IMG/VR virus record: IMGVR_UViG_3300045912_000261
Coordinates: 48,534 to 112,533 of that record
DNA: 64,000 bases
Origin: a virus
Direction: 5' to 3' (one strand)
The notes beneath the pieces were generated by a model that was not told the origin of the DNA, searched no databases, and saw only the letters and a list, made by a program, of their open reading frames with translations. Shown here one piece after another: positions 28,774 to 63,993 of this stretch. Every line of letters starts with the position of its first letter. The first letter of the stretch is position 1. The position numbers and the translations under genes were made by a program.

Positions 28774-31700
28774 TTAGGACTTTGCGCCCGCTGTCTCCGC
28801 CGGCATGGGCTCGGCGATGAGCTTGTCGATCTCCGCGTTGGGAGACCATCGCGGACGCTTGGTGACGCCACCCTCCTTCGTTTCCGCCTCATCCGACTTG
28901 CCGTCGGTCGCAGGGGCTGCCGGCCCTAGGCCGCGAACCCGAGCGGAGGCCTGAATGTACTCACTGATCTCTTCCTTCTTGGCCTCGATCAGCTCGGCTG
29001 CCTTCTCCTTGAAGACGTCCATCTGAGACTTGGTCTCAGACCCATCCTCAGAGGTCTCGGCCTCGTACACCGCGTCGTACATCTCTGCGCGGATGGTCTT
29101 CTGCGAAGCAGGCCGCAGACCACTCGCTGCCAGCATGCGGTCTAGCTCTGCACGCTGATCCCGCTTGAGGTCCTCGACCTTCTGCATCTCACGAACTTCG
29201 GCAACCGCGGCCTCGCGAGCCTCAGTGAGCATCTTCTCAAGCTCCTCCCGGGTAACCGGGACGGTCTCAGAGGTCTCACCCTCAGCCTGGCTTTCAGTTG
29301 CCTCCGTGCCGGGTACAGTAACACCCTGGTTGGACAGAGCCTCAATCGTCTCTGCCTCAACCTGCGCACGGAACTGATCGAGAAGGTCTGGACGGTCCTG
29401 CATCAGGTCGTCCAGGGTCCCCTCGAACTTAGCCATGGTCTCCTCCTTGTGGGATTCTGCGACTGACACAAACCCGCCTCCTGCGCCAGCCTCAGTAACG
29501 AAGTCTACCGAGCGGCCCTGGATAAAGCTTTCCACGACGCGGTAGTCCTTGCCGTCAACCCTTCCGGGCTTGGCAATAGCTCGAGCTCGAATGCTGACAC
29601 CTAGGTGGGCGTGCCCCTTCTTAGCCTTCTGGTGGAAAGCCTCGTCTACGAAGGTGACTCCACCGTAGCCCGTACCTGTGTCATCAGCCCAAGCTTCCTC
29701 GATTACGGCCGCCCAGTCATCGACACTCCTGGTGCGGCCACCTAGCTTCTTCTCCTCCTCCGGAGTGAGGTGATCCTTGTACATCTTCTTGCCCTCTGCG
29801 AGGACCTTGATGTCGCGGCGGATCACGTCGCCGGGGTAGTAGAACCGGTCTGCGGGGTTGCCCGGTCCCGGAACGATGACGCGGATGATCGCGTCAACAT
29901 CTTTACCCGAGGGAGTCTTGGGCTTTGAGGGGGCTGTTTTGGACTCGGCAATCGAGACGAGACCCTCCATGGGGACCATTTCGTCGACGGTTACCTCCGC
30001 CCCACCATCCTCAGCTACCTGTACGACATCCCCATCGGGCGGGTCTTCCGTCTCGAGCTCTTCAGAGACGGAGCCTTCGGCTTCGCCTTCGGGCGGGGCT
30101 TCGACTTGGCCTTCATCCTCTTTGGCATTAGACCCCTTTCTGCCAGCCTTACCGAGAACCTCAAGTGCGCGGCGGCGCACCTTCTTCTTCTCTTCCTCAG
30201 TGAGGTCGGACTGGTTAATCATTGCCAGCGCGAGGCGGGCGTGATTCACGTCCGGGATCGGAAACTTGTACTCCTTGGACCCATCGGGCTTCGTGCGGAC
30301 AATCACGGCCGAACGCTTCCTCTCCTCAGCTGAGAGGCGCGCGGCGTAGATCTCCACGCCTGGAGGACTAGGTGCCCGAGTTGACTGGTTGCTAGTGCTA
30401 GTGCTAGTGCTGGGTGCCCGAGTCGCCTCGGTGCCAGCCTCCTCGGGGGACTTCCTGCCTGAGGTGGCTGCATCGATACAGGCTTTTCTGGCCTCAACGA
30501 AGCTCTTACCCGCACGGATCTGCTTCTTCAGGCAGTCCCCGAAGTTGTTAACGGAGCCTGTTGCGGCCAGCTTTGCCGTCTGTTCACTAGCTGCCTCCGA
30601 CACTCTGGGGATGGGGGGCAACTTCTTACCAAGGATGCTCCTGGGGCCCCGAATGATCCTGCCGCTCTTGTCCTCCACAAGCGCCGGCATCGAACGGTTA
30701 CCGTTCTTGACGATCACCCACGTAAAGCCCTTCGGTGAACCTTGGGAACGGTCATCCTGCTCGCTGTCAACTCGGGCACCCTGTCCTTCAGGGGACTCGT
30801 CCGACGAGTCATCAGCCGAATCGGCCGAATCGGCACCGGAGTCTACCGCCCCAGGCTCCTCCACCGAGTCGTCGGTAGGATTAGGTGCCGAGTCGTCCGA
30901 CGCGCTGGGTACCTCGTCGTCAGTAGTGGAGGCTTCATCCTTGGCTGGAGTCTCTGCGGTAGCTGAGGACTCCGAGGTCTCAGCCTTCTTGTACTCGATC
31001 TCGACGCGCTCTGCTTCGCCGTTAAGGACGACCTGCCCAGCGGAGTCGACAGAGTAGAACTGGCGATAGAGTTCGGGGCCATGGGCATCGCCATGGCGAT
31101 CGAACTCAAAGATCACGTGGTCGTTAAACGTCTCGCGGATGTAGCAATACCCGCTGTTGGCGTAGAGAGGGTCGTTCTTCTTGTACTTCTCCCGCAGGGC
31201 GGCGTGAAGTCTCTCCTTGATCCTCTCCTGGGAGGCAGCCTCGGCGCTTTCGTCTCCACTACAGCCGCAACCGCCCTCCTCGGCGGCTTTCTTCAGAAGC
31301 TCGACCTGCTTTGCCATAGCTGCGGCCTCCCACGCCTCCATGTCGTCGCCGTCGGTCCCGTCGTCGTCGGGATCGTCCCAGGCGAAGCCAGGATCGGCAA
31401 TGTCGTCGTACACGGAGGGCGCATCCCTCTCCATCCCTGGATCGTAGCCCTCCTTCGTCTCCCTCTCCATCTCGGCCTCGAGGAAGTCAGAGAGCTCGTT
31501 GCAGAAGACGTCGAACCCCTCCTCGTCAGGCATCCAGCTAGGGAGCAAAATGGTATTGCCCGCCTCCAGAAGCTCCATTGCTTCCGCAGCGGACGCGGCC
31601 TTCTTGGCCTTGATCAGGGCAATGTCCCTTGCGCGGCTCTTGCGCCACGAAGTTGTGCCCAGCCACTGGTCCTTTAGCCAAGCACAGAGTCTGTTGACAT

Positions 31701-40752: not shown

Positions 40753-42918
40753 CTAGTACCTCACGCCTTCGTAAGTCTCAATGCCCAGGTCGTCCAGAGT
40801 GACGTAGTCCTCGCCGGGCATCGTAAGTACGCTGTGACCGAAGCGGGACAGGTACCCCACGACACCAGCAACGGAATCTGAGGTCTCCTTGAGCCCCGTG
40901 ATGCTCTGTCCGCCATCCTCTAGCTGCATGAGCTCCCTGGACGCCCAGCCATAGTTCATCACGCGGATACGACCCTCGTTGACCGCGAGCTGGAGGTCTG
41001 TGTAGGGCTGCTTGTCAACTGCCATAGGAGCTCCGGTTCCATAGGGGACCCCTGTGTTGGGATCGATCAGCGCGCCCACGGTTACGAGACCAGCCCTAAC
41101 AAACTTCTGTACCAGCGAGGCACTCTGGAAACCTGCCACACTAGCCGACGTGATGAGGAACCTCCGCACCTGGCGAAGGGCAATGATGAAGTCTGCACAT
41201 GCGCCTAGGTTTAGGTGCCCCACACGTGGCGCGATGACACGCATCACTAGGGGCACTTCGAAAAGGGGCACCTCAACTTCCATAGGCGCGTTCTCGATGA
41301 ACGTAACAACCCGCTTCCAGTTGGAGATGCGCCCCAGGGCAACAGACGCAATCCCGCCTCCGGCAGCTACCGAGAGGTGTGCATGCCACAGAATCTGCGC
41401 GTCGCCCTGGAACTCAGGCTTCAGGGCTGCCAGCAGAGTGTCCAAGGAGCTACCGTCTGCCACTAGCCACTCTGAGCGCTCTGCTGCGGTCTCCTCCGTG
41501 GTCTCAGTGTCGGAATCCGCATCTGGATCCCACTTGTCGGTAGCAAGAATGCTCGAGGAGTAGTCCCTAATGGCTCCTTCAGGGTTCAGCTGGGACTGGA
41601 GAACGAATGCCTCGTCGATCTTGCGGCCCTCTGGGAACAGCATCCGGCGGCCGGGACGCTCAGCGAGCATGATGCCTGCCATCGACATCGTGTCCACCTG
41701 GTCGTCATGGTCCCCGTTCGGGAAGTTCAAGAGCTCTTCCTCCCAGTCGGGAAGCCAGGGTGCCGAGTCGCGAGCATACACAGTCCCTGCTGCGAAGCGC
41801 GCAAGGATACTCGAGGCCCGGGAAACCTTGTCCTTGTCGGCAGGGATGGGTCTGACAGGGAGGCCCTCCCTAAGGGCTGTCTGCACCACACTCAGCTGGA
41901 AGCCGGTCTTCTCAATCCCGATGTACCCGGGGTGCCACTTCTGGTACACCCTATTGAGGAGGTTGATGTGATCCGGGCCAGCCATGCGGGATCGCTGCAC
42001 ATCTAGCACCAGGAGGTCAGCCTCGGGAGTCACCCCGAACACAGAAACGACAGAGTAGTCCGCTGTCTCCTTCAGGGATGTTGCAAGGTCGGTCGTGGCA
42101 AATCGGAAGAGGTCCTGGGGAGCTACGGTCTTTAGATCCCCATTGCTTTGTAGGAGCTGGTAGAATCCAGTGCTGGGGTCGACAGTGAAGTACTTGAACC
42201 ACTCAGGCTTGAACTGGTGGGCGCCAGGAGCGATGAACTGGGCCTCGTACTCTTGTGCAAACTTGTAGGGTCCCAGCTCGAGCTTAGCAGCCTCAATCTC
42301 GGTCTGGGGGATCTTGGGATTGTCAGCTGTGGGCCTCTGCCACCGCGCCCAATCACCCAGCTTCGGTACCCGTTCGAAGAGCTTCCAGAACCAGTTGCGT
42401 CCCTGGGGAGTGGAGATGAAGATGCACCAACCTTCACGGTCGGAGAGCGCGGGGCGCAGGGCCTCAGCCCAGGCGTCCTCTTTCACATAGGCAGCCTCGT
42501 CGATAACGAGGCCGTCTAGACCTGAGCCTCGAAGCGAGTCGGGGTTGTCAGTTGACCTCACAGTAATGCTGCCGCCACCAGGAAGAACGATCCGGCGCTC
42601 CACCTCACTCTTTTCGACCCAGGCTCCGATAAGAGCCTTCTTCAGGTCGCGCCAGATCTGGTTGGAGATGTTATAGGTGGGGCAAACCCACCAGACATTG
42701 CCTCCCTGGAGAGCACCAATTCGGGGGCTGTCTGCGGGGCCGTGACCCTGAACCACTGACATGAGACCCAAGACGGTCTTCCCCCAGCGGCGCCCACAGC
42801 AGCAAACCTTGAAGCGTGCAGGGGACTCTAACACTACGGCCTGGTGCTGCAGCGCTCTCGGCAGGATGATGCGCGGAACATCCTCCAAGTCTAGGGGTCG
42901 ACCAGCCGTTACGGGCAT
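40753..42918 (-). CDS. Terminase large subunit with extra C-terminal nuclease-like domain
   Basis: 721 residues, about 200 longer than typical. Walker A GRRWGKT (42-48) and Walker B VIDEAA (138-143) define the packaging ATPase; the RNase H-like nuclease follows with TTDLA, IGIEK and DHDDQVD acidic positions. From ~480 a further ~240 residues read like a second terminase nuclease fold (HAHLSVAAGGGIASVALG; ASVAGFQSASLVQKF; VDKQPYTDLQLAVNEGRI; ETSDSVAGVVGYL) with the canonical acidic residues largely replaced. A duplicated, probably inactive domain is inferred. Confidence 0.9.
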   Translation of the reverse strand: MPVTAGRPLDLEDVPRIILPRALQHQAVVLESPARFKVCCCGRRWGKTVLGLMSVVQGHGPADSPRIGALQGGNVWWVCPTYNISNQIWRDLKKALIGAWVEKSEVERRIVLPGGGSITVRSTDNPDSLRGSGLDGLVIDEAAYVKEDAWAEALRPALSDREGWCIFISTPQGRNWFWKLFERVPKLGDWARWQRPTADNPKIPQTEIEAAKLELGPYKFAQEYEAQFIAPGAHQFKPEWFKYFTVDPSTGFYQLLQSNGDLKTVAPQDLFRFATTDLATSLKETADYSVVSVFGVTPEADLLVLDVQRSRMAGPDHINLLNRVYQKWHPGYIGIEKTGFQLSVVQTALREGLPVRPIPADKDKVSRASSILARFAAGTVYARDSAPWLPDWEEELLNFPNGDHDDQVDTMSMAGIMLAERPGRRMLFPEGRKIDEAFVLQSQLNPEGAIRDYSSSILATDKWDPDADSDTETTEETAAERSEWLVADGSSLDTLLAALKPEFQGDAQILWHAHLSVAAGGGIASVALGRISNWKRVVTFIENAPMEVEVPLFEVPLVMRVIAPRVGHLNLGACADFIIALRQVRRFLITSASVAGFQSASLVQKFVRAGLVTVGALIDPNTGVPYGTGAPMAVDKQPYTDLQLAVNEGRIRVMNYGWASRELMQLEDGGQSITGLKETSDSVAGVVGYLSRFGHSVLTMPGEDYVTLDDLGIETYEGVRY

Positions 42919-43608: not shown

Positions 43609-43959
43609 CTACTTTTTGAAGAGTCCTGTCAGTACTGCTAGAGGCAGGTACCCCATCAGCAGAAGATACGCGGCTAGGAGAGGAGCTGCCACCGTTCCGT
43701 CCCGGGAGTCGAAGAAGAGAAGGGCTCCGCCAAAGATGAAAGCTACCACTGTCGAGATAACCGGCCACCAGACCCGAAACCACTGAGGAGGCCCATCTGG
43801 AGGGTAGGGATTCTCCTTGCCCTTGATGCCTCCGTTGCCGCTGTCGCTGTCGCTGCCGTTGCCTCCCCTCCTGCTCCCTCTGGGCCTCTTCTGCCCCCTC
43901 TGGGGCTCGGTTGACATCAGGAGCCCTGGGAGCAAGCCTACCGCTGCCGTAGACATCAC
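43609..43959 (-). CDS. Two-helix membrane protein
   Basis: About 116 residues from a GTG overlapping the HNH stop; an alternative ATG at 43917 gives 102. Gly/Ser/Asp/Arg-rich linker, then two transmembrane segments (WWPVISTVVAFIFGGALLFF; APLLAAYLLLMGYLPLAVL) separated by SRDGTV. Holin-like topology, but far from the endolysin. Confidence 0.6.
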   Translation of the reverse strand: MMSTAAVGLLPGLLMSTEPQRGQKRPRGSRRGGNGSDSDSGNGGIKGKENPYPPDGPPQWFRVWWPVISTVVAFIFGGALLFFDSRDGTVAAPLLAAYLLLMGYLPLAVLTGLFKK

Positions 43960-44562: not shown

Positions 44563-45105
44563 CTAGCTACTGCGCCAGTCGACTTCTTCGGGAAGCTTAT
44601 TGTGCTTCCGGCAGTTACAGGACTTGCAGGCTGGAGTTACATTCTCTAGCTCGTGCCGTCCACCCCTGCTGACGGGTACAATGTGATCTACTGTGACAGT
44701 ACCTGGAGTAAGAGTGATTTCGCAGTACGTACACTTCCAGCCCAAGAATTCACATAGCTCGAAAAAGTCCCTCAGGTCTAGATAGCCTCCAGCCTCAGTC
44801 CTACGCGCTCGGTAAGCATGCTGCCAGTTGCGCTGTTTCTCCCTGTTGCGCTCTAGGTACTCTTGCTGTTGCTCCCGAATCCAGTCCGCATTCAGTTTCC
44901 TATACTGGCGATTGTACTCTGAGATGTGCCCTTTGTGTTGTAAGCCCCAAGCTTTTCTACTGGGGTAGGATTCACCGTTGTGGCAAGGCTTACAGCGCCA
45001 AGAGCGCCCTTTGCGGCCGCTTCGGTTCTTGTAAAAGGCCCCAGGAGGCAAATCTTGACCACACTTTCCGCAGCGGAGCAACTCCTGTTCCCTTACAAGA
45101 TTCAA
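44563..45105 (-). CDS. HNH endonuclease 2
   Basis: 180 residues from a TTG (45103-45105) overlapping the previous TGA, with GGAG upstream. CGKCG..CKPC zinc knuckle, CTYC, VDHIVPVSRGGRHELENV, CKSCN: a complete HNH fold. It ends DWRSS, the same five residues that end the small terminase candidate upstream, which may mark a past insertion or duplication. Related in architecture to HNH 1. Confidence 0.85.
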   Translation of the reverse strand: MNLVREQELLRCGKCGQDLPPGAFYKNRSGRKGRSWRCKPCHNGESYPSRKAWGLQHKGHISEYNRQYRKLNADWIREQQQEYLERNREKQRNWQHAYRARRTEAGGYLDLRDFFELCEFLGWKCTYCEITLTPGTVTVDHIVPVSRGGRHELENVTPACKSCNCRKHNKLPEEVDWRSS

Positions 45106-45917
45106 CTACTTCTCCAATCATCTGTATAAATCACTTGGACCTGGACGGTGCCCTGGTTGTTCCCGATGCTGACACCTGGCTTCTGGTCGTTCGCGGGGTG
45201 CTTGCCGTCGCCGTTGGTAGGCTTGCTGGGCTCCTTGCCCCGACTGAGCCTCTCTAGCGCAACGCCGTTCTTGAGCCACTCGTTCATCATCTGAGGCGTA
45301 AGCTCTTCGGGGTCCATGTCCTCTAGGGCCTCTGCTACCTTGTCAATAAGGCGTCTGGCGAGGCCTGCATGAGTCAGCTCCATCTCAATGCTGTCGGCGC
45401 GGAGCTGGATTTCCTGTTCCTGCTCTCTGAACTTGTCGTACGCGCTTGCGCGATACTGCCAGCAGTAAAGGGCTGCGATCGTGTTGAGCGTCGCGGGGTT
45501 CACCTTCAAGAGCTCGGCTACCTTCGCCAGCGTCCGCCGCTTATGCTGCGCCAGCCTGCTCTTTGTAAGGTTGCTTGCCTGTGTGGCACTAGAGGCCGTG
45601 ATCGTGGTATAAGGGTAATCCCTGTACTTCTTGAACGCCTCGTAGTACTTCATCGGCTCGTTCTCGAGGCGCTCCCAAAAAGGTGTCCCCTGCGGCGTAG
45701 TGGGGAAACCTTCAACGTAGCTTAGCGGGATGAGGGTGGGCTCCTCGTAGTCCTCGCTCAGGGTTGTGGGGTCCCAGTACCCCTCGATGTTGCCATCGAC
45801 GTCTAGGGGGAGCTGTCTGGCGTTGGCTCTATCGACTAGCGCCTTAGTCGCATTGAGCATCTCCGGAGGGAGATCCAGCTCTTGTCTTGCGGTAGTGGGT
45901 TCTAGTGCGGTCCCCAT
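45102..45917 (-). CDS. Terminase small subunit candidate
   Basis: 271 residues, ATG at 45917. First gene after the leftward promoter. Helical core with HTH-like segment (HKRRTLAKVAELLKVNPATLN; YCWQYRASAYDKFRE) followed by a long helix and a disordered Lys/Asn-rich tail, consistent with DNA-recognising small terminases. The position before HNH and large terminase supports this. No unique motif confirms it. Confidence 0.65.
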   Translation of the reverse strand: MGTALEPTTARQELDLPPEMLNATKALVDRANARQLPLDVDGNIEGYWDPTTLSEDYEEPTLIPLSYVEGFPTTPQGTPFWERLENEPMKYYEAFKKYRDYPYTTITASSATQASNLTKSRLAQHKRRTLAKVAELLKVNPATLNTIAALYCWQYRASAYDKFREQEQEIQLRADSIEMELTHAGLARRLIDKVAEALEDMDPEELTPQMMNEWLKNGVALERLSRGKEPSKPTNGDGKHPANDQKPGVSIGNNQGTVQVQVIYTDDWRSS

Positions 45918-45944
45918 GCTCCAGCTCGATCTAGGGTCCCATCT

Positions 45945-46006
45945 TACTTGAATTATACACTCCGGGGCAGGATGATTTCACGATCATTTTCGACCGATTT
46001 AGTCTC
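45945..46006 (-). promoter_or_regulatory. Leftward promoter at the divergent centre
   Basis: Minus strand TATAAT (45957-45952), 18-bp spacer, -35-like GTGAAA (45981-45976). AAAATGATCGTGA (45990-45978) and distal ACTAAA match the 32.1-kb promoter. It would drive terminase, portal and the rest of the structural operon. Confidence 0.75.
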
Positions 46007-46100
46007 CGAGCCCAAACCGACTTGATCGGGCACCTGCCCCCCCCCCGTCCAAACCCTGCCTGTTTTGCCTGCCCCCTTGTAGGAGAAGAGACGGCTGCGC
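46007..46100. other. C-rich boundary of the divergent region
   Basis: No gene. Contains a C9 run (46036-46044) and several C3-C5 runs on the plus strand, then changes abruptly to the C-free tract. The strong strand asymmetry in opposite senses on the two sides is conspicuous. Confidence 0.7.
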
Positions 46101-46408
46101 GGTGGTTGGAATTAGAATGGTTGGGTGATAGTTGTATAGAGGAGGTTAGAGGGGATGTGGTTGAAAGAATTTGTAAGGTAGTAAAGAGAGGAAAGTAGAT
46201 TGGTAAGTTTATGGTAGATGGAAGGTTAAAGTGAAGGAAGGAAAGGAGATGATGAAGGAATGAAGTAGGAAAGGTTGAAGTAGTTGGTGTAGAGTATAGT
46301 GAAAGGAGTGGGGGATATGTGGATGATGATGTGGAATGGTGAGGTGGAGAGTGTGGAAAAGGTGAAGAAGGAATGTGAGATGTTTGAGTTGGAGATGGTG
46401 ATGGGTTG
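46101..46408 (+). other. 308-nt cytosine-free tract
   Basis: Not one C occurs on the plus strand from 46101 to 46408. Composition is G-rich, then A, then T, with GG/GGA/GTGG motifs but no perfect tandem repeat. Frequent TGA/TAG stops exclude a protein. The minus strand is G-free, so it contains no ATG, GTG or TTG. It lies between the divergent arms. Candidate roles: R-loop replication origin, Rho-loading (leftward RNA is G-free, C-rich), or unstructured RNA. Confidence 0.95.
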
Positions 46409-46433
46409 CCGCTGGACGGAAAGTTTTGTGTGA

Positions 46434-46470
46434 TTCTCCGGGGATCGAAGTCTGTTTTGTTGAAGTTAGG
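46434..46470 (+). promoter_or_regulatory. Leader element copy 1 (TCTCCGGGGA...AGTCTGTT)
   Basis: First of three related ~36-nt elements: TCTCCGGGGA, 4 variable bases, AGTCTGTT, then a TGAAGTTAG-like end. Found 63 nt before the start at 46533. Possibly a promoter-proximal operator or RNA element. Confidence 0.6.
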
Positions 46471-46532
46471 CTTCAGAGGGGATATGGAGCCGAGATGGAC
46501 GGTCAGTCACCGTACAATCCGAGGAGGATACA

Positions 46533-46790
46533 ATGGCCGCTGCGAAGAACACCGAGAAGAAGATCTACGTCCGTGTGGACGTGAAGCAGGTGCGCAAGGG
46601 GTTCGTGCTCGTGAGCCGCACGGTCCCCGGAGGGAACCTGGACGCCGTGCCGGAGGACGTCAAGTTCCTGACGCGCGGGATGTACATCCGGACGGATGAG
46701 GAGGTCCAGGTGGGCGACAAGCTCCGTCTGGAGATCATCGTCCGAGGGGTCGAGCGCCCGGAGGTCGGCGGCGACGACCAGGAGTTCTAG
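46533..46790 (+). CDS. Small beta-rich protein, first gene of the right arm
   Basis: 85 residues, ATG preceded by GAGGAGGATACA. Beta-stranded (KIYVRVDVKQVRKGFVLVSR; DKLRLEIIVRG) with acidic tail. No membrane segment. Not recognised. Followed by leader element copy 2. Confidence 0.7.
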   Translation: MAAAKNTEKKIYVRVDVKQVRKGFVLVSRTVPGGNLDAVPEDVKFLTRGMYIRTDEEVQVGDKLRLEIIVRGVERPEVGGDDQEF

Positions 46791-46821
46791 CAGGACGAGC
46801 TAGAGCTAGAGCATGAGCAGG

Positions 46822-46865
46822 CTGCAGTCTCTCCGGGGACTGCAGTCTGTTCAGGTGAAAGTAAG
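46822..46865 (+). promoter_or_regulatory. Leader element copy 2 with hairpin
   Basis: TCTCCGGGGA...AGTCTGTT element (46830-46865) embedded in a perfect hairpin: CTGCAGTC and GACTGCAG pair around TCTCCGGG. The next start is 18 nt downstream. Confidence 0.65.
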
Positions 46866-46883
46866 CAACCGGAAGGGGGATAC

Positions 46884-47021
46884 ATGCCCGAGATGCCGCA
46901 GGACCCGAAGTGTCCGGTCTGCCGCCGGTGGTGCTCGGAGCGCGAGTGGCTCCAAGGGCAGTGTGACGACTGCCCGGGGCCGCCCCGCTCAGGCCGCCGG
47001 CCGTCCCGAAAGGGGGACTAG
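46884..47021 (+). CDS. 45-residue zinc-ribbon-like protein
   Basis: Short frame with CPVC near the start and CDDC after ~17 residues, a two-CxxC zinc ribbon, and a basic C-terminus. ATG at 46884; GGAAGGGGG upstream. The stop overlaps the next GTG (TAGTG). Function unknown; possibly nucleic-acid binding. Confidence 0.6.
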   Translation: MPEMPQDPKCPVCRRWCSEREWLQGQCDDCPGPPRSGRRPSRKGD

Positions 47022-47296
47022 TGATCCCGAGCAAGCCCAAGCTGGGCCTCAACACCCGCCCGCTGGCCATGGAGCGCATGCGCACCCGGATGGAGTCCCA
47101 CATCCGCCGCGCCCTGGCCGGCCTCGACCTCCATGGCGACACCGACTACTACCTCGCCGAGACGGAAGAGACCGTCCGTGAGGTGGCCGCGCTCCACTGC
47201 CCCTCCGCGGACGACTGGGGCGAGATGTACCCTCTGGCCTGTCTCGTCGCCCAGAGAATCGAAGACGACCAACCGACCCGAAAGGAGGATACGTGA
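47021..47296 (+). CDS. Hypothetical helical protein
   Basis: 91 residues from a GTG coupled to the previous stop; AGGGGGA upstream. Helical with HIRRALAGLDL and acidic AETEETVREV. Not recognised. Overlaps the next gene by 4 nt (GTGA). Confidence 0.65.
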   Translation: MIPSKPKLGLNTRPLAMERMRTRMESHIRRALAGLDLHGDTDYYLAETEETVREVAALHCPSADDWGEMYPLACLVAQRIEDDQPTRKEDT

Positions 47297-47535
47297 CCAC
47301 ACCCACGCTCACCGTCGGTGAGTTCGCACACAACCGCCTCGAGGAGCTACTGGACGCCGAGCTCCAGCAGGCCGTGGGGGACGGCGACTCCTCCACGCTC
47401 GCGATGCACGCCCCTCGAGCAATCCGCGCAGTCGCCACGGAGATCACGGTGTGCTACGGCATCCCGTTCCCGCTGTCCATGCGCGACGCCGATGAGGCGT
47501 TCAGCACCGTGCTGGCCTCGTGGGGGATCCACTGA
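47293..47535 (+). CDS. Hypothetical helical protein
   Basis: 80 residues from a GTG (47293) after AGGAGG. Helical, acidic (HNRLEELLDAELQQAVGDG; DADEAFSTVLASWG). Not recognised. Operonic with its neighbours. Confidence 0.65.
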   Translation: MTTPTLTVGEFAHNRLEELLDAELQQAVGDGDSSTLAMHAPRAIRAVATEITVCYGIPFPLSMRDADEAFSTVLASWGIH

Positions 47536-47536
47536 C

Positions 47537-47608
47537 GTGGAGCTCATCCTCGCCCTGGCCGCCGCGGTCCTGCTGTACGGCATCGGCTCCATCATCCACG
47601 ACCTCTAG
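47537..47608 (+). CDS. 23-residue membrane peptide
   Basis: GTG start just after the preceding stop; almost entirely one hydrophobic helix (LILALAAAVLLYGIGSII). Similar single-helix peptides occur at 54508, 59732, 61161 and 62205. Could be a membrane-targeting regulator or toxin-like peptide; no proof. Confidence 0.5.
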   Translation: MELILALAAAVLLYGIGSIIHDL

Positions 47609-47641
47609 GGCCGGCTAGTTCCCCTGCCAAGCCGTAGAGTA

Positions 47642-47722
47642 CCAAGATCCGGGTCTTGGGCCGAAAGGTACCGAGAAAGGTCCAAAGGTTCCAAGATCCG
47701 GATCTGGAGCCGTAAGGTTTCC
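47642..47722 (+). repeat. Two 31-32-bp direct repeats with palindromic cores
   Basis: Copy A 47642-47672 and copy B 47691-47722 share CCAAGATCCGG, TCT, GCCG and AAGGT, 49 bp apart. Each core is self-complementary (CCAAGA...TCTTGG; AGATCCGGATCT), as expected for operator sites of a dimeric repressor. The 273-bp gap 47609-47881 otherwise holds leader element copy 3 and a ribosome site. Confidence 0.7.
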
Positions 47723-47782
47723 AAGAGAAGCCGGGAGGGGATAGGAATCCGGAGGTTGCCACTGAATGTGATGTGGTTGTGT

Positions 47783-47818
47783 TTCTCCGGGGAATGAAGT
47801 CTGTTAGGTTGAAGTTGG
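47783..47818 (+). promoter_or_regulatory. Leader element copy 3
   Basis: TCTCCGGGGAATGAAGTCTG version of the shared element, 64 nt before the start at 47882. Shares the TTGAAGTT end with copy 1. Confidence 0.6.
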
Positions 47819-47863
47819 ATATTCGGGAAGTAGAGGATGTCCGCTTCAGTCCATAGGTACCTA

Positions 47864-47878
47864 GAGCTCAGGAGGCTC
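47864..47878 (+). promoter_or_regulatory. Shine-Dalgarno hairpin (GAGCT-CAGGA-GGCTC)
   Basis: Ribosome site of the HTH gene at 47882 lies in a 5-bp stem with CAGGA pentaloop and U-G closing pair. One of nine similar structures in the right arm. Confidence 0.7.
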
Positions 47879-47881
47879 GAG

Positions 47882-48178
47882 ATGGCCAAGAAGAACGAGA
47901 AGATCGTCCTGACCTCCGAGGAGATCGCGCTGGCCAAGGCGCTGACCGAGGCCGCGAACGGCGAGAAGTCGTCCGTGATGCGGCACCTGTTCGGCCACGA
48001 GGGGTGGTCGCGGGGCAAGATCCGGGCGGCGCTGACGGTCGTGCACTTCGGGAAGCAGGACGTGGAGCCCGGGGTGCGGTTCCAGCACGTGTACAACGTG
48101 ACGAAGGGCATGGAGGCCGGGAAGCACAAGCCGGAGCTGGAGCTGCCGAAGGCGAAGGAGACGCCGACGGCCGCGTAG
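47882..48178 (+). CDS. HTH-family small protein, paralogue 1
   Basis: 98 residues from the ATG at 47882 (AGGAGG upstream; a longer frame from 47837 is rejected). The core GEKSSVMRHLFGHEGWSRGKI, then VRFQHVYNV, matches a small phage HTH-like family (resolvase-like HTH: G.S...I...L....Q.VYN). Paralogues at 49044 and 58915. Likely a DNA-binding regulator. Confidence 0.75.
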   Translation: MAKKNEKIVLTSEEIALAKALTEAANGEKSSVMRHLFGHEGWSRGKIRAALTVVHFGKQDVEPGVRFQHVYNVTKGMEAGKHKPELELPKAKETPTAA

Positions 48179-48194
48179 TCCGAAGGACCGACGG

Positions 48195-48224
48195 ACGGAG
48201 GGGGACAAGGAGGTCCCCTTCCGT
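48195..48224 (+). terminator. Strong hairpin between 47882 and 48252 genes
   Basis: 12-bp stem (ACGGAGGGGGAC with its complement, one G-U) and 6-nt loop. No U-tract, so it may be a processing or attenuating hairpin rather than a true terminator. Confidence 0.45.
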
Positions 48225-48230
48225 ACACCA

Positions 48231-48247
48231 AGAACCCAGGAGGTTCT
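48231..48247 (+). promoter_or_regulatory. Shine-Dalgarno hairpin (AGAACC-CAGGA-GGTTCT)
   Basis: Perfect 6-bp stem with CAGGA loop, 4 nt before the ATG at 48252. Confidence 0.75.
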
Positions 48248-48251
48248 CAGC

Positions 48252-48503
48252 ATGCCGAAGATTCGCGAGCTGGTATCCACGGCGGCGAAGCGAGCCGTCG
48301 AGGACCTGGTGTTCGAGCAGAGGTTGCTCGAAGCCGGTGGCGAGGTCCGCACGATGACCGAGTCGCAGCTGATGCAGACGATCAGGGGCACGAAGGTGCC
48401 CCGAGCGTTCAGGATCGCAGCGGCACGGGAGATGCGCAGGCGCGACGATCGGGAGCGTGAGCTCAGGTCGCTCGAGACGCTGATGCGCACCAACGGACGA
48501 TAG
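48252..48503 (+). CDS. Basic helical protein
   Basis: 83 residues, highly charged, helical (AAKRAVEDLVFEQRLLEAG; RIAAAREMRRRDDRERELRS). Likely nucleic-acid associated. Ends 65 bp before an intrinsic terminator. Not recognised. Confidence 0.7.
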   Translation: MPKIRELVSTAAKRAVEDLVFEQRLLEAGGEVRTMTESQLMQTIRGTKVPRAFRIAAAREMRRRDDRERELRSLETLMRTNGR

Positions 48504-48568
48504 GTCGGGTGTCGGCTAGCCGCAGAGGCTAGAGACAAGCCGATCACGAAGCCGGGCGGTGGTCCCAA

Positions 48569-48596
48569 GGACGGGATCGCCGTCCGGTTTTTTTTT
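48569..48596 (+). terminator. Intrinsic terminator
   Basis: GGACGG/CCGTCC stem with GATCG loop, GG, then nine T (48588-48596). It ends the first right-arm unit. Confidence 0.9.
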
Positions 48597-48890
48597 GCCG
48601 CCCCGCTCCGCGGGAACACCTCGGGCGCGGCTTCGCCGCAGCGTAAAGCTTGCGCGATGTTGCTACACGGAGGCAGCAACGATCTCGCTACCAGCAGCCC
48701 GTCCGGGGCTCCGCCCCTCCCGGGAGCCGGCTAGGGCCCCCCAGTTTCTGCGCTTAGCACGGCCGATCCCAGTCCGCCCGGGCGCCTTCCCTAGGAACCT
48801 GGCCCGAGCCGCCCTGGACGCTGGGCCGGGCCCAGTCCGCCGCACTCGGTTCCCAGGACACAAGGTTATAGGACCCGATGGCCCGGGACA
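48597..48890. other. GC-rich non-coding gap
   Basis: No supported gene. Several strong hairpins (GCGGC/GCCGC; GGGGC/GCCCC) and an 11-bp direct repeat CCCAGTCCGCC at 48768-48778 and 48831-48841. It could encode a structured RNA; no promoter seen inside. Confidence 0.5.
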
Positions 48891-49043: not shown

Positions 49044-49316
49044 ATGGCCGACAACACCGACACCAAGACCCCGGAGACCACCGAGACCCAGCGCGGCCCC
49101 GAGGTGTCCGAGAACGACATCCGCCACGCCGAGAAGCTGACCAAGGACGCGGGCGGGAAGAAGTCCCCGGTCATGCGCCAGCTGGCCGACGAGGGCTGGA
49201 GCACGGGCAAGATCGCCAAGGCGCTCACCGCCGTGCACTACCCCAACGGCGACAAGCAGGTGCGGTTCCAGCACGTCTACAACGTCCTCAACGGCCGGAA
49301 GCCCAAGGGGTCGTAG
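49044..49316 (+). CDS. HTH-family small protein, paralogue 2
   Basis: 90 residues from the ATG at 49044. Thr/Glu-rich N-terminus, then KSPVMRQLADEGWSTGKIAKA and VRFQHVYNVLNG. Closest to paralogue 1. Flanked by its own promoter and terminator, so separately controlled; possibly an abundant regulator. Confidence 0.8.
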   Translation: MADNTDTKTPETTETQRGPEVSENDIRHAEKLTKDAGGKKSPVMRQLADEGWSTGKIAKALTAVHYPNGDKQVRFQHVYNVLNGRKPKGS

Positions 49317-59817: not shown

Positions 59818-59868
59818 GAGCCGGGGAGGCTCGCGAAAAGACCTCTCCGGCTCTTCCTTTGTTTCTGT
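59818..59868 (+). terminator. Intrinsic terminator
   Basis: GAGCCGGGGAGG (59818-59829) and CCTCTCCGGCTC (59842-59853) form a 12-bp stem with one G-U, followed by TTCCTTTGTTTC. Confidence 0.85.
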
Positions 59869-60403
59869 AGCACTCAGTTCTTCAGGTTTCTTCATGCGAT
59901 CTTGTGATTTTTCACCCCGTCTTCGCTCAGTTCTTTCAGATACGTTTCATTTTATCCGATACCCGACATTTTATCAGCACAGACGAAAACATACTAAATA
60001 GGCCTTAATAGCACGAAAAACCTCAGGAAACCTCTCATAACTGATGTGAGCTGAAAAAACTGAAGAACCGAAACAAATTTTCTACTATATCGATTCTAGA
60101 TTGATCTTCATTCCTTCATCATACTTCCTTCATAACTCCATCATATTCTGGTCGATATAGTATATTCCTACCTTCCTACCTACGGAATGTCCTTCTCGAT
60201 TCTAATATAGGGCTCTTTTATTTCGGTTCTTCAGTTCTTTCATCTCCTATCATCAACCAGTAAGATCCCATAAGTTTTTGGATCTATCTAGTATGTTTTC
60301 GTCTCGTTTCGTCTCAGAAGATAGACTGATATCTCTCGGATGAAATGAAACAGATACACCAGATTTTCGCGAGTCTGATACATCGGTCCACCTCCATTGG
60401 TAG
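59869..60403. other. AT-rich non-coding block with nested inverted repeats
   Basis: About 535 bp without a supported gene and clearly AT-richer than its surroundings. Perfect arms CTGAAGAACCGAAA (60060-60073) / TTTCGGTTCTTCAG (60221-60234) enclose perfect arms TACTATATCGA (60083-60093) / TCGATATAGTA (60152-60162). The centre has repeated CCTTCAT. Candidate replication origin or structured RNA. Confidence 0.8.
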
Positions 60404-63643: not shown

Positions 63644-63993
63644 CGAAGCGACAACCCTTCTCCTCTCAGCCCGAAGCGACATTCCGACTCGCTGCTCTCC
63701 GAGGTGACATCCCGAACCGGCCCTTTCGGCCCTCAGCGACTGACCACCCCCACTCCGCCCGAAGCGACAATCCGCGTCCTTTCAGACCGACGCGACATAT
63801 CACACCGAGTCCGTCCGACGCGACACGCCTCGTCGTGTCCTCTCATCTCGACCCAAAGCGACTCTCCGTGCCACCTCTCGTCGAAGCGACGTTCCCGACC
63901 ATCTCCCGTCCCGTCGGCCCCTCCCGAAGCGACTCACCGAGCCGGCTCGAAGCGACATCCCGTATCGCGTCGGTCCAGCCAAGCCGAAGCGAC
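63644..63993 (+). repeat. Twelve-copy CGAAGCGAC array on a mostly 28-bp period
   Basis: CGAAGCGAC or a close variant starts at 63644, 63672, 63700, 63732, 63760, 63788, 63816, 63854, 63882, 63925, 63948 and 63985. Six of eleven intervals are exactly 28 bp. Sequences between differ and are C-rich. No gene is seen in 63622-64000, and the array may run past the window. Confidence 0.9.

What the first reader, a model, noticed from the sequence alone, without database searches (positions are those of the whole stretch)
46101..46408. A 308-nt tract with no cytosine at the divergent centre
The plus strand has no C for 308 consecutive bases in a genome where C is roughly a quarter or more, and a C-rich stretch with a C9 run precedes it. 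It cannot be coding: plus-strand stops are frequent and the G-free minus strand has no start codon. Two mechanistic readings are plausible. Rightward transcription would give a G-rich RNA prone to R-loops, a known way to prime replication. Leftward RNA would be G-free and C-rich, an ideal Rho-loading site to stop readthrough into the late genes. Either makes it a directional element between the two arms.
Basis: partly seen in the sequence, partly recalled or inferred. Interest (0 to 1): 0.92.

Follow-up and report, generated by a model that had tools for sequence, protein, structure and literature searches.

The report
308-base cytosine-free tract in phage
A virus of bacteria carries, in the control gap between its two opposing gene blocks, 308 bases in a row without a single cytosine; the tract is real as assembled, is not a simple repeat, is missing at the same place in its relatives, and most likely lets transcription pass one way and not the other, but that function is unproven.

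Summary
Confirmed: 46101-46408 (+) has no C in 308 bases; the next longest C-free run in the 112.5-kb viral record is 32. It lies in the 615-nt gap between the terminase small subunit (head of the leftward late arm) and the first rightward gene. It is not a repeat, G-quadruplex or ORF. Its G:A:T ratio equals the genome's with C removed. In 396 bacterial genomes, the C-free runs of 155 nt or more that were inspected were repeats or lay in AT-rich DNA; 80 terminase relatives and 54 capsid/polymerase relatives have nothing like it. Two relatives with the orthologous gap (and two with the same architecture) have 324-420-nt gaps without it, so it is lineage-specific. C depletion continues rightward (46409-46532) and recurs at 47733-47832, both at copies of one leader element, tying it to the rightward arm. 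Best reading: a one-way Rho gate. Rightward RNA has no C, so Rho cannot load; leftward RNA is G-free, 42% C, with folding energy 0. A published assay shows this asymmetry on designed G-less/C-less templates. An R-loop origin is weaker: few G runs, and an iteron array elsewhere is the better origin candidate. Why exclusion is absolute is unexplained.

The parts
46101..46408 (+). C-free tract (minus strand G-free), 308 nt, non-coding, non-repetitive
46037..46046 (+). C10 run, longest in the window, in the C-rich left flank (45918-46100 is 34% C); would be G10 in leftward RNA, just past the tract
46409..46532 (+). C-poor continuation of the tract up to the first rightward gene (17.7% C, lowest 0.34% of such windows)
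46435..46467 (+). copy 1 of a leader element TCTCCGGGGANNNNAGTCTGTT, immediately right of the tract
46830..46862 (+). second copy along the right arm of the same element (intergenic)
47784..47816 (+). third copy along the right arm, inside the most C-depleted 100-nt stretch of the record outside the tract (47733-47832, 10 C)
45102..45917 (-). terminase small subunit (phrog_6299), first gene of the leftward late arm
45952..45981 (-). sigma-70-like leftward promoter GTGAAA-18-TATAAT (10/12) ahead of the terminase gene; the tract lies upstream of it
46533..46790 (+). 85-aa ORF, no family match, first gene of the rightward arm
40753..42918 (-). terminase large subunit, late arm

Best explanation
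The tract is a lineage-specific addition to the conserved divergent control region. It acts as a one-way gate for transcription, set by base composition rather than by a motif. RNA made rightward through it (into the early or replication arm) contains no C, so the termination factor Rho cannot load on this long untranslated leader. RNA made leftward (antisense from the right arm, towards the late genes) is G-free, C-rich and unstructured, so Rho loads and removes the polymerase before the late promoter, probably around the G10 that follows. Shown: composition, non-coding state, lack of structure, position, lineage-specificity, and linkage of C depletion to right-arm leaders. Inferred: that the tract is transcribed, that the host's Rho acts on it, and that this is what selection sees.
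For: The leftward RNA is by far the strongest C>G bubble of the record (area 19,858 against 9,168 for the next on either strand) and has folding energy 0.0, against a mean of -115 for random 308-nt windows; rightward RNA is -8.2. All 231 leftward 78-nt windows in the tract meet my re-implementation of the published C/G and 11-13-nt C-spacing rule, none rightward (rule from PMC6407284). In vitro a 114-bp G-less template supports Rho release and its C-less version is deficient (PMC9908020). C depletion is not confined to the tract: 46409-46532 is in the lowest 0.34% of windows, and the most C-poor 100 nt of the record outside the tract is another right-arm leader at a copy of the same element. 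The left boundary is sharp, with a C-rich flank.
Against: Rho loading needs about 80 nt, and predicted E. coli rut sites average C/G 1.6 with no strong gain from higher ratios (PMC6407284), so neither loading nor avoidance obviously demands zero C over 308 nt. YC dimers are not enriched: GG, which is CC on the minus strand, is below expectation. No leftward promoter is recognisable to the right of the tract and no rightward one to its left. Orthologous gaps in relatives do without it. Host unknown, so its Rho was not examined.
Confidence: 0.33

Rival explanations
1. R-loop or unwinding element: rightward G/A-rich RNA stays hybridised to the C/T-rich template and primes replication, or the tract is an easily melted origin or loading site.
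For: GC skew is 1.0 over 300 nt; nothing above 0.41 was seen in 14 relative sequences. Purine content is 74%; tract GC is 42% against 59% for the record; the site is the divergent centre.
Against: Only four G3+ runs, far apart; G4Hunter mean 0.75. No iteron-like repeat structure in the gap. An array of about a dozen GAAGCGAC iterons, many 28 nt apart, lies at the right contig end. Relatives lack the bias.
Confidence: 0.13
2. DNA-level packaging or structural element: a spacer next to the terminase small subunit gene (pac-like), or a strand that must stay unstructured when single-stranded, to load a helicase, recombinase or terminase.
For: It abuts the terminase small subunit gene; the minus strand has folding energy 0 as DNA.
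Against: No strong repeats and no inverted repeats for binding; relatives with homologous TerS at the same place lack it; a recognition site does not need the exclusion of one base.
Confidence: 0.14
3. Strict base exclusion: something attacks or marks each C of one strand (or each G of the other), or transcription must run here without CTP (rightward) or GTP (leftward), so every single C is selected against.
For: Exclusion is absolute; G:A:T equals the genome's ratio with C left out (p=0.50), the pattern expected if only C is forbidden. The genome encodes FolE, QueD-like and QueC proteins of the preQ0 (7-deazaguanine) pathway and a dCMP deaminase-like protein.
Against: No TGT/DpdA-type transglycosylase detected with PF01702; no direct sign of a base-specific enzyme acting here; relatives do without the tract.
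Confidence: 0.15
4. Artefact or recent accident: mis-assembly, foreign or untemplated 3-letter DNA, not maintained by selection.
For: Single contig; about the length by which this gap exceeds those of relatives; no sequence relatives anywhere searched.
Against: It keeps the genome's GG and TA depletion (0.78 and 0.74 against about 0.8); composition matches the genome; C depletion continues past its edge; no C-stripped or C-masked copy in the record.
Confidence: 0.15

Closest known systems
Rho utilisation (rut) sites / Rho-dependent terminators
   Same: Leftward RNA is C-rich, G-poor, unstructured and ribosome-free, longer than the 70-80 nt needed.
   Different: G entirely absent over 308 nt, where predicted E. 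coli rut sites average C/G 1.6; sits upstream of a promoter in a divergent gap; no known leftward transcript.
Designed G-less / C-less transcription cassettes
   Same: Random-looking three-letter sequence of a few hundred bases; opposite Rho behaviour of the two versions was shown in vitro (PMC9908020).
   Different: Those are man-made; this one lies in a viral genome. No natural counterpart was found in the collections searched.
R-loop-primed origins (ColE1, T4 oriF; own knowledge)
   Same: Strong strand asymmetry at a regulatory junction.
   Different: No G clusters, no identified promoter, not conserved at the locus.

Membership tests
Rho-dependent terminator (leftward) | At least 70-80 nt C>G RNA with regularly spaced C | tested here: met
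   231 of 231 windows
Rho-dependent terminator (leftward) | Unstructured and untranslated | tested here: met
   Folding energy 0; no start codon on the minus strand
Rho-dependent terminator (leftward) | Excess of YC dimers | tested here: not met
   89 YC dimers follow from composition; GG (CC on minus) below expectation. This is a preference, not a strict requirement.
Rho-dependent terminator (leftward) | Downstream pause or release zone | tested here: inconclusive
   G10 in leftward RNA about 55-64 nt past the tract; pausing itself not testable
Rho-dependent terminator (leftward) | Transcribed in that direction | tested here: inconclusive
   No sigma-70-like leftward promoter found in 46409-48800; phage or other promoter types not covered
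Rho-dependent terminator (leftward) | Rho-dependent loss of downstream RNA | not testable with these tools
   needs RNA data
R-loop-primed origin | G-cluster initiation zone | tested here: not met
   Four isolated G3+ runs at 46123, 46151, 46310, 46403
R-loop-primed origin | Promoter upstream reading into the tract | tested here: inconclusive
   None at 9/12 or better
R-loop-primed origin | Initiation of replication there | not testable with these tools
   needs replication mapping
G-quadruplex / telomere-like G-strand repeat | Repeated G-tracts | tested here: not met
   G4Hunter 0.75, no G-tract repeats
Simple-sequence C-free repeat | Low complexity or tandem unit | tested here: not met
   6-mer complexity 0.78, equal to shuffles; repeat-type C-free runs in bacteria score at most 0.47
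Known structured RNA (Rfam) | Covariance-model match | tested here: not met
   No match up to E=1 in 44-64 kb

The most novel reading that the evidence does not exclude
A natural base-exclusion element: function depends on every one of 308 positions being 'anything but C' (or 'anything but G' on the other strand), a kind of cis element defined by a forbidden letter rather than by a motif or structure, for example for CTP-independent transcription or for keeping one strand free of modifiable guanines.
Probability: 0.22. Interest if true: 0.88.

Novelty: new variant of a known kind. Interest (0 to 1): 0.6.

Why it matters
If it is a one-way Rho gate, it is an extreme natural test of how base composition alone sets the direction of transcription, and a ready-made part for insulating divergent operons. 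If single C substitutions matter, it would be a cis element defined by a forbidden base. Either can be tested by putting the tract, both ways round, into a reporter in laboratory E. coli.

Tried and rejected
A G-free 62-nt run in relative G025 upstream of its terminase first looked like a conserved counterpart, but it codes for a proline-rich linker inside an ORF. The idea that the tract is an ordinary sequence with C deleted or masked: no C-stripped or C-wildcard match in the record. Leader peptide: the plus frame from ATG 46317 is open for 38 codons, but a run that long is expected by chance in such a C-free sequence about once in ten tries (my estimate). Ribosome-decoy idea: SD-like motifs not enriched. 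Periodicity: none. Order-k Markov comparison did not tell sense from antisense beyond the effect of stop codons. Direct searches with the terminase small subunit, the first right-arm protein and the leader element found no relatives in the viral collection. Paper searches for cytosine-free, cytosine-less or C-lacking natural tracts found nothing relevant.

Full report
Observation. The plus strand at 46101-46408 has no C in 308 bases. The next longest C-free run is 27 in the window and 32 in the full 112,533-base viral record; the window is record positions 48534-112533. A 148-nt C-free window never occurs in 100 dinucleotide shuffles. The preceding C run is C10, the longest in the window.

Anatomy. 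The record has a leftward arm of structural genes (terminase, portal, capsid) and a rightward arm with DNA polymerase, ligase, helicase, nuclease and small genes. The tract is in the 615-nt gap between the terminase small subunit gene (45102-45917, -) and an 85-aa ORF (46533-46790, +). The gap splits into a C-rich left part (45918-46100, 34% C), the tract (0%) and a C-poor right part (46409-46532, 17.7% C, lowest 0.34% of windows). A sigma-70-like leftward promoter lies at 45981-45952, left of the tract; no comparable promoter reads into the tract from either side. Immediately right of the tract begins an element present three times, always in right-arm intergenic gaps on + (46435, 46830, 47784). 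Apart from the tract, the most C-depleted 100 nt of the whole record is 47733-47832, at the third of these. C depletion is thus linked to right-arm leaders.

Nature of the sequence. It is not repetitive (6-mer complexity 0.78 against 0.79 shuffled), has no periodicity, no G-quadruplex potential (G4Hunter 0.75) and no homologue. Its G:A:T counts equal the genome's proportions with C removed (p=0.50), and it keeps the genome's GG and TA depletion. The leftward RNA has folding energy 0.0 and the rightward -8.2, against a mean of -115 for random windows of the record.

How unusual. In 396 bacterial genomes (about 1.6 Gb by my estimate from the listed sizes), C-free runs of at least 155 nt occur in 17; those inspected were tandem or purine repeats (complexity at most 0.47) or lay in DNA of 24-35% GC. 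Among 54 polymerase or capsid relatives, runs of 60 or more occur in four records; one of these is coding and the others look AT-rich. Among 80 terminase-large-subunit relatives the longest C- or G-free run is 85, in a 35% GC contig.

The same locus in relatives. Relatives G016 and G019, found through the polymerase, encode terminase small subunits homologous to this one (1.8e-9 and 4e-12 in pairwise comparison, both phrog_6299) at the head of a leftward arm facing a rightward arm. In G019 the first rightward gene resembles two right-arm genes of the window (7e-6 and 3e-5, pairwise). Their gaps are 420 and 410 nt, with longest C-free runs of 22 and 35 and no strong bias; G001/G002 share the architecture with a 324-nt gap and longest C-free run 20. 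The relatives are distant (28-30% identity in the small subunit), so a function acquired in this lineage stays open.

Mechanism. Experiments on designed templates show that a G-less RNA supports Rho release and the C-less equivalent is deficient (PMC9908020). Rut sites are described as C-rich, G-poor and unstructured (PMC9160355; PMC6407284). By these rules the tract should block leftward RNA and pass rightward RNA. My preferred reading is this one-way gate, with selection perhaps acting mainly on the rightward leader, since C depletion continues into the other right-arm leaders. The weak point is absoluteness: a higher C/G ratio brings no strong gain, so Rho alone does not explain zero C. Strict base exclusion would, but no enzyme is identified. 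The preQ0 genes (FolE and QueC; QueD-like) suggest 7-deazaguanine chemistry, yet no TGT-type transglycosylase was detected.

Origin reading. A better origin candidate is the iteron-like array GAAGCGAC at 63645-63993, often 28 nt apart, at the contig end. The tract lacks G clusters and iteron-like repeats.

Limits. A near-identical 5.2-kb contig from a second metagenome supports the virus but not the tract.

Noticed in passing
63645-63993: Iteron-like array GAAGCGAC, about a dozen copies, many 28 nt apart, pyrimidine-rich spacers, running to the contig end; candidate replication origin.
   Followed up: partly
59850-60330: AT-rich, G-poor non-coding stretch with inverted repeat ACTATATCGA (60084) / TCGATATAGT (60152) around a 46-nt G-free pyrimidine-rich run.
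   Followed up: no
46435, 46830, 47784: Three copies of TCTCCGGGGANNNNAGTCTGTT, only in right-arm gaps; not found in other viral contigs.
   Followed up: partly
L004:5594-6352, L004:13927-14862, record 28891-29352: QueC, GTP cyclohydrolase I and a QueD-like protein (preQ0 pathway) without a TGT/DpdA hit.
   Followed up: partly
L008:1-2544: DNA polymerase A fused to an N-terminal uracil-DNA-glycosylase domain.
   Followed up: no
L003:17420-18982: TROVE/Ro60-like RNA-binding protein in the replication arm.
   Followed up: no
43827-43913: 87-nt run without A on +, longest in the record, inside a late-arm ORF.
   Followed up: no
47882-48178 and 49044-49316: Two paralogous-looking small right-arm proteins resembling the first rightward gene of relative G019.
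   Followed up: partly
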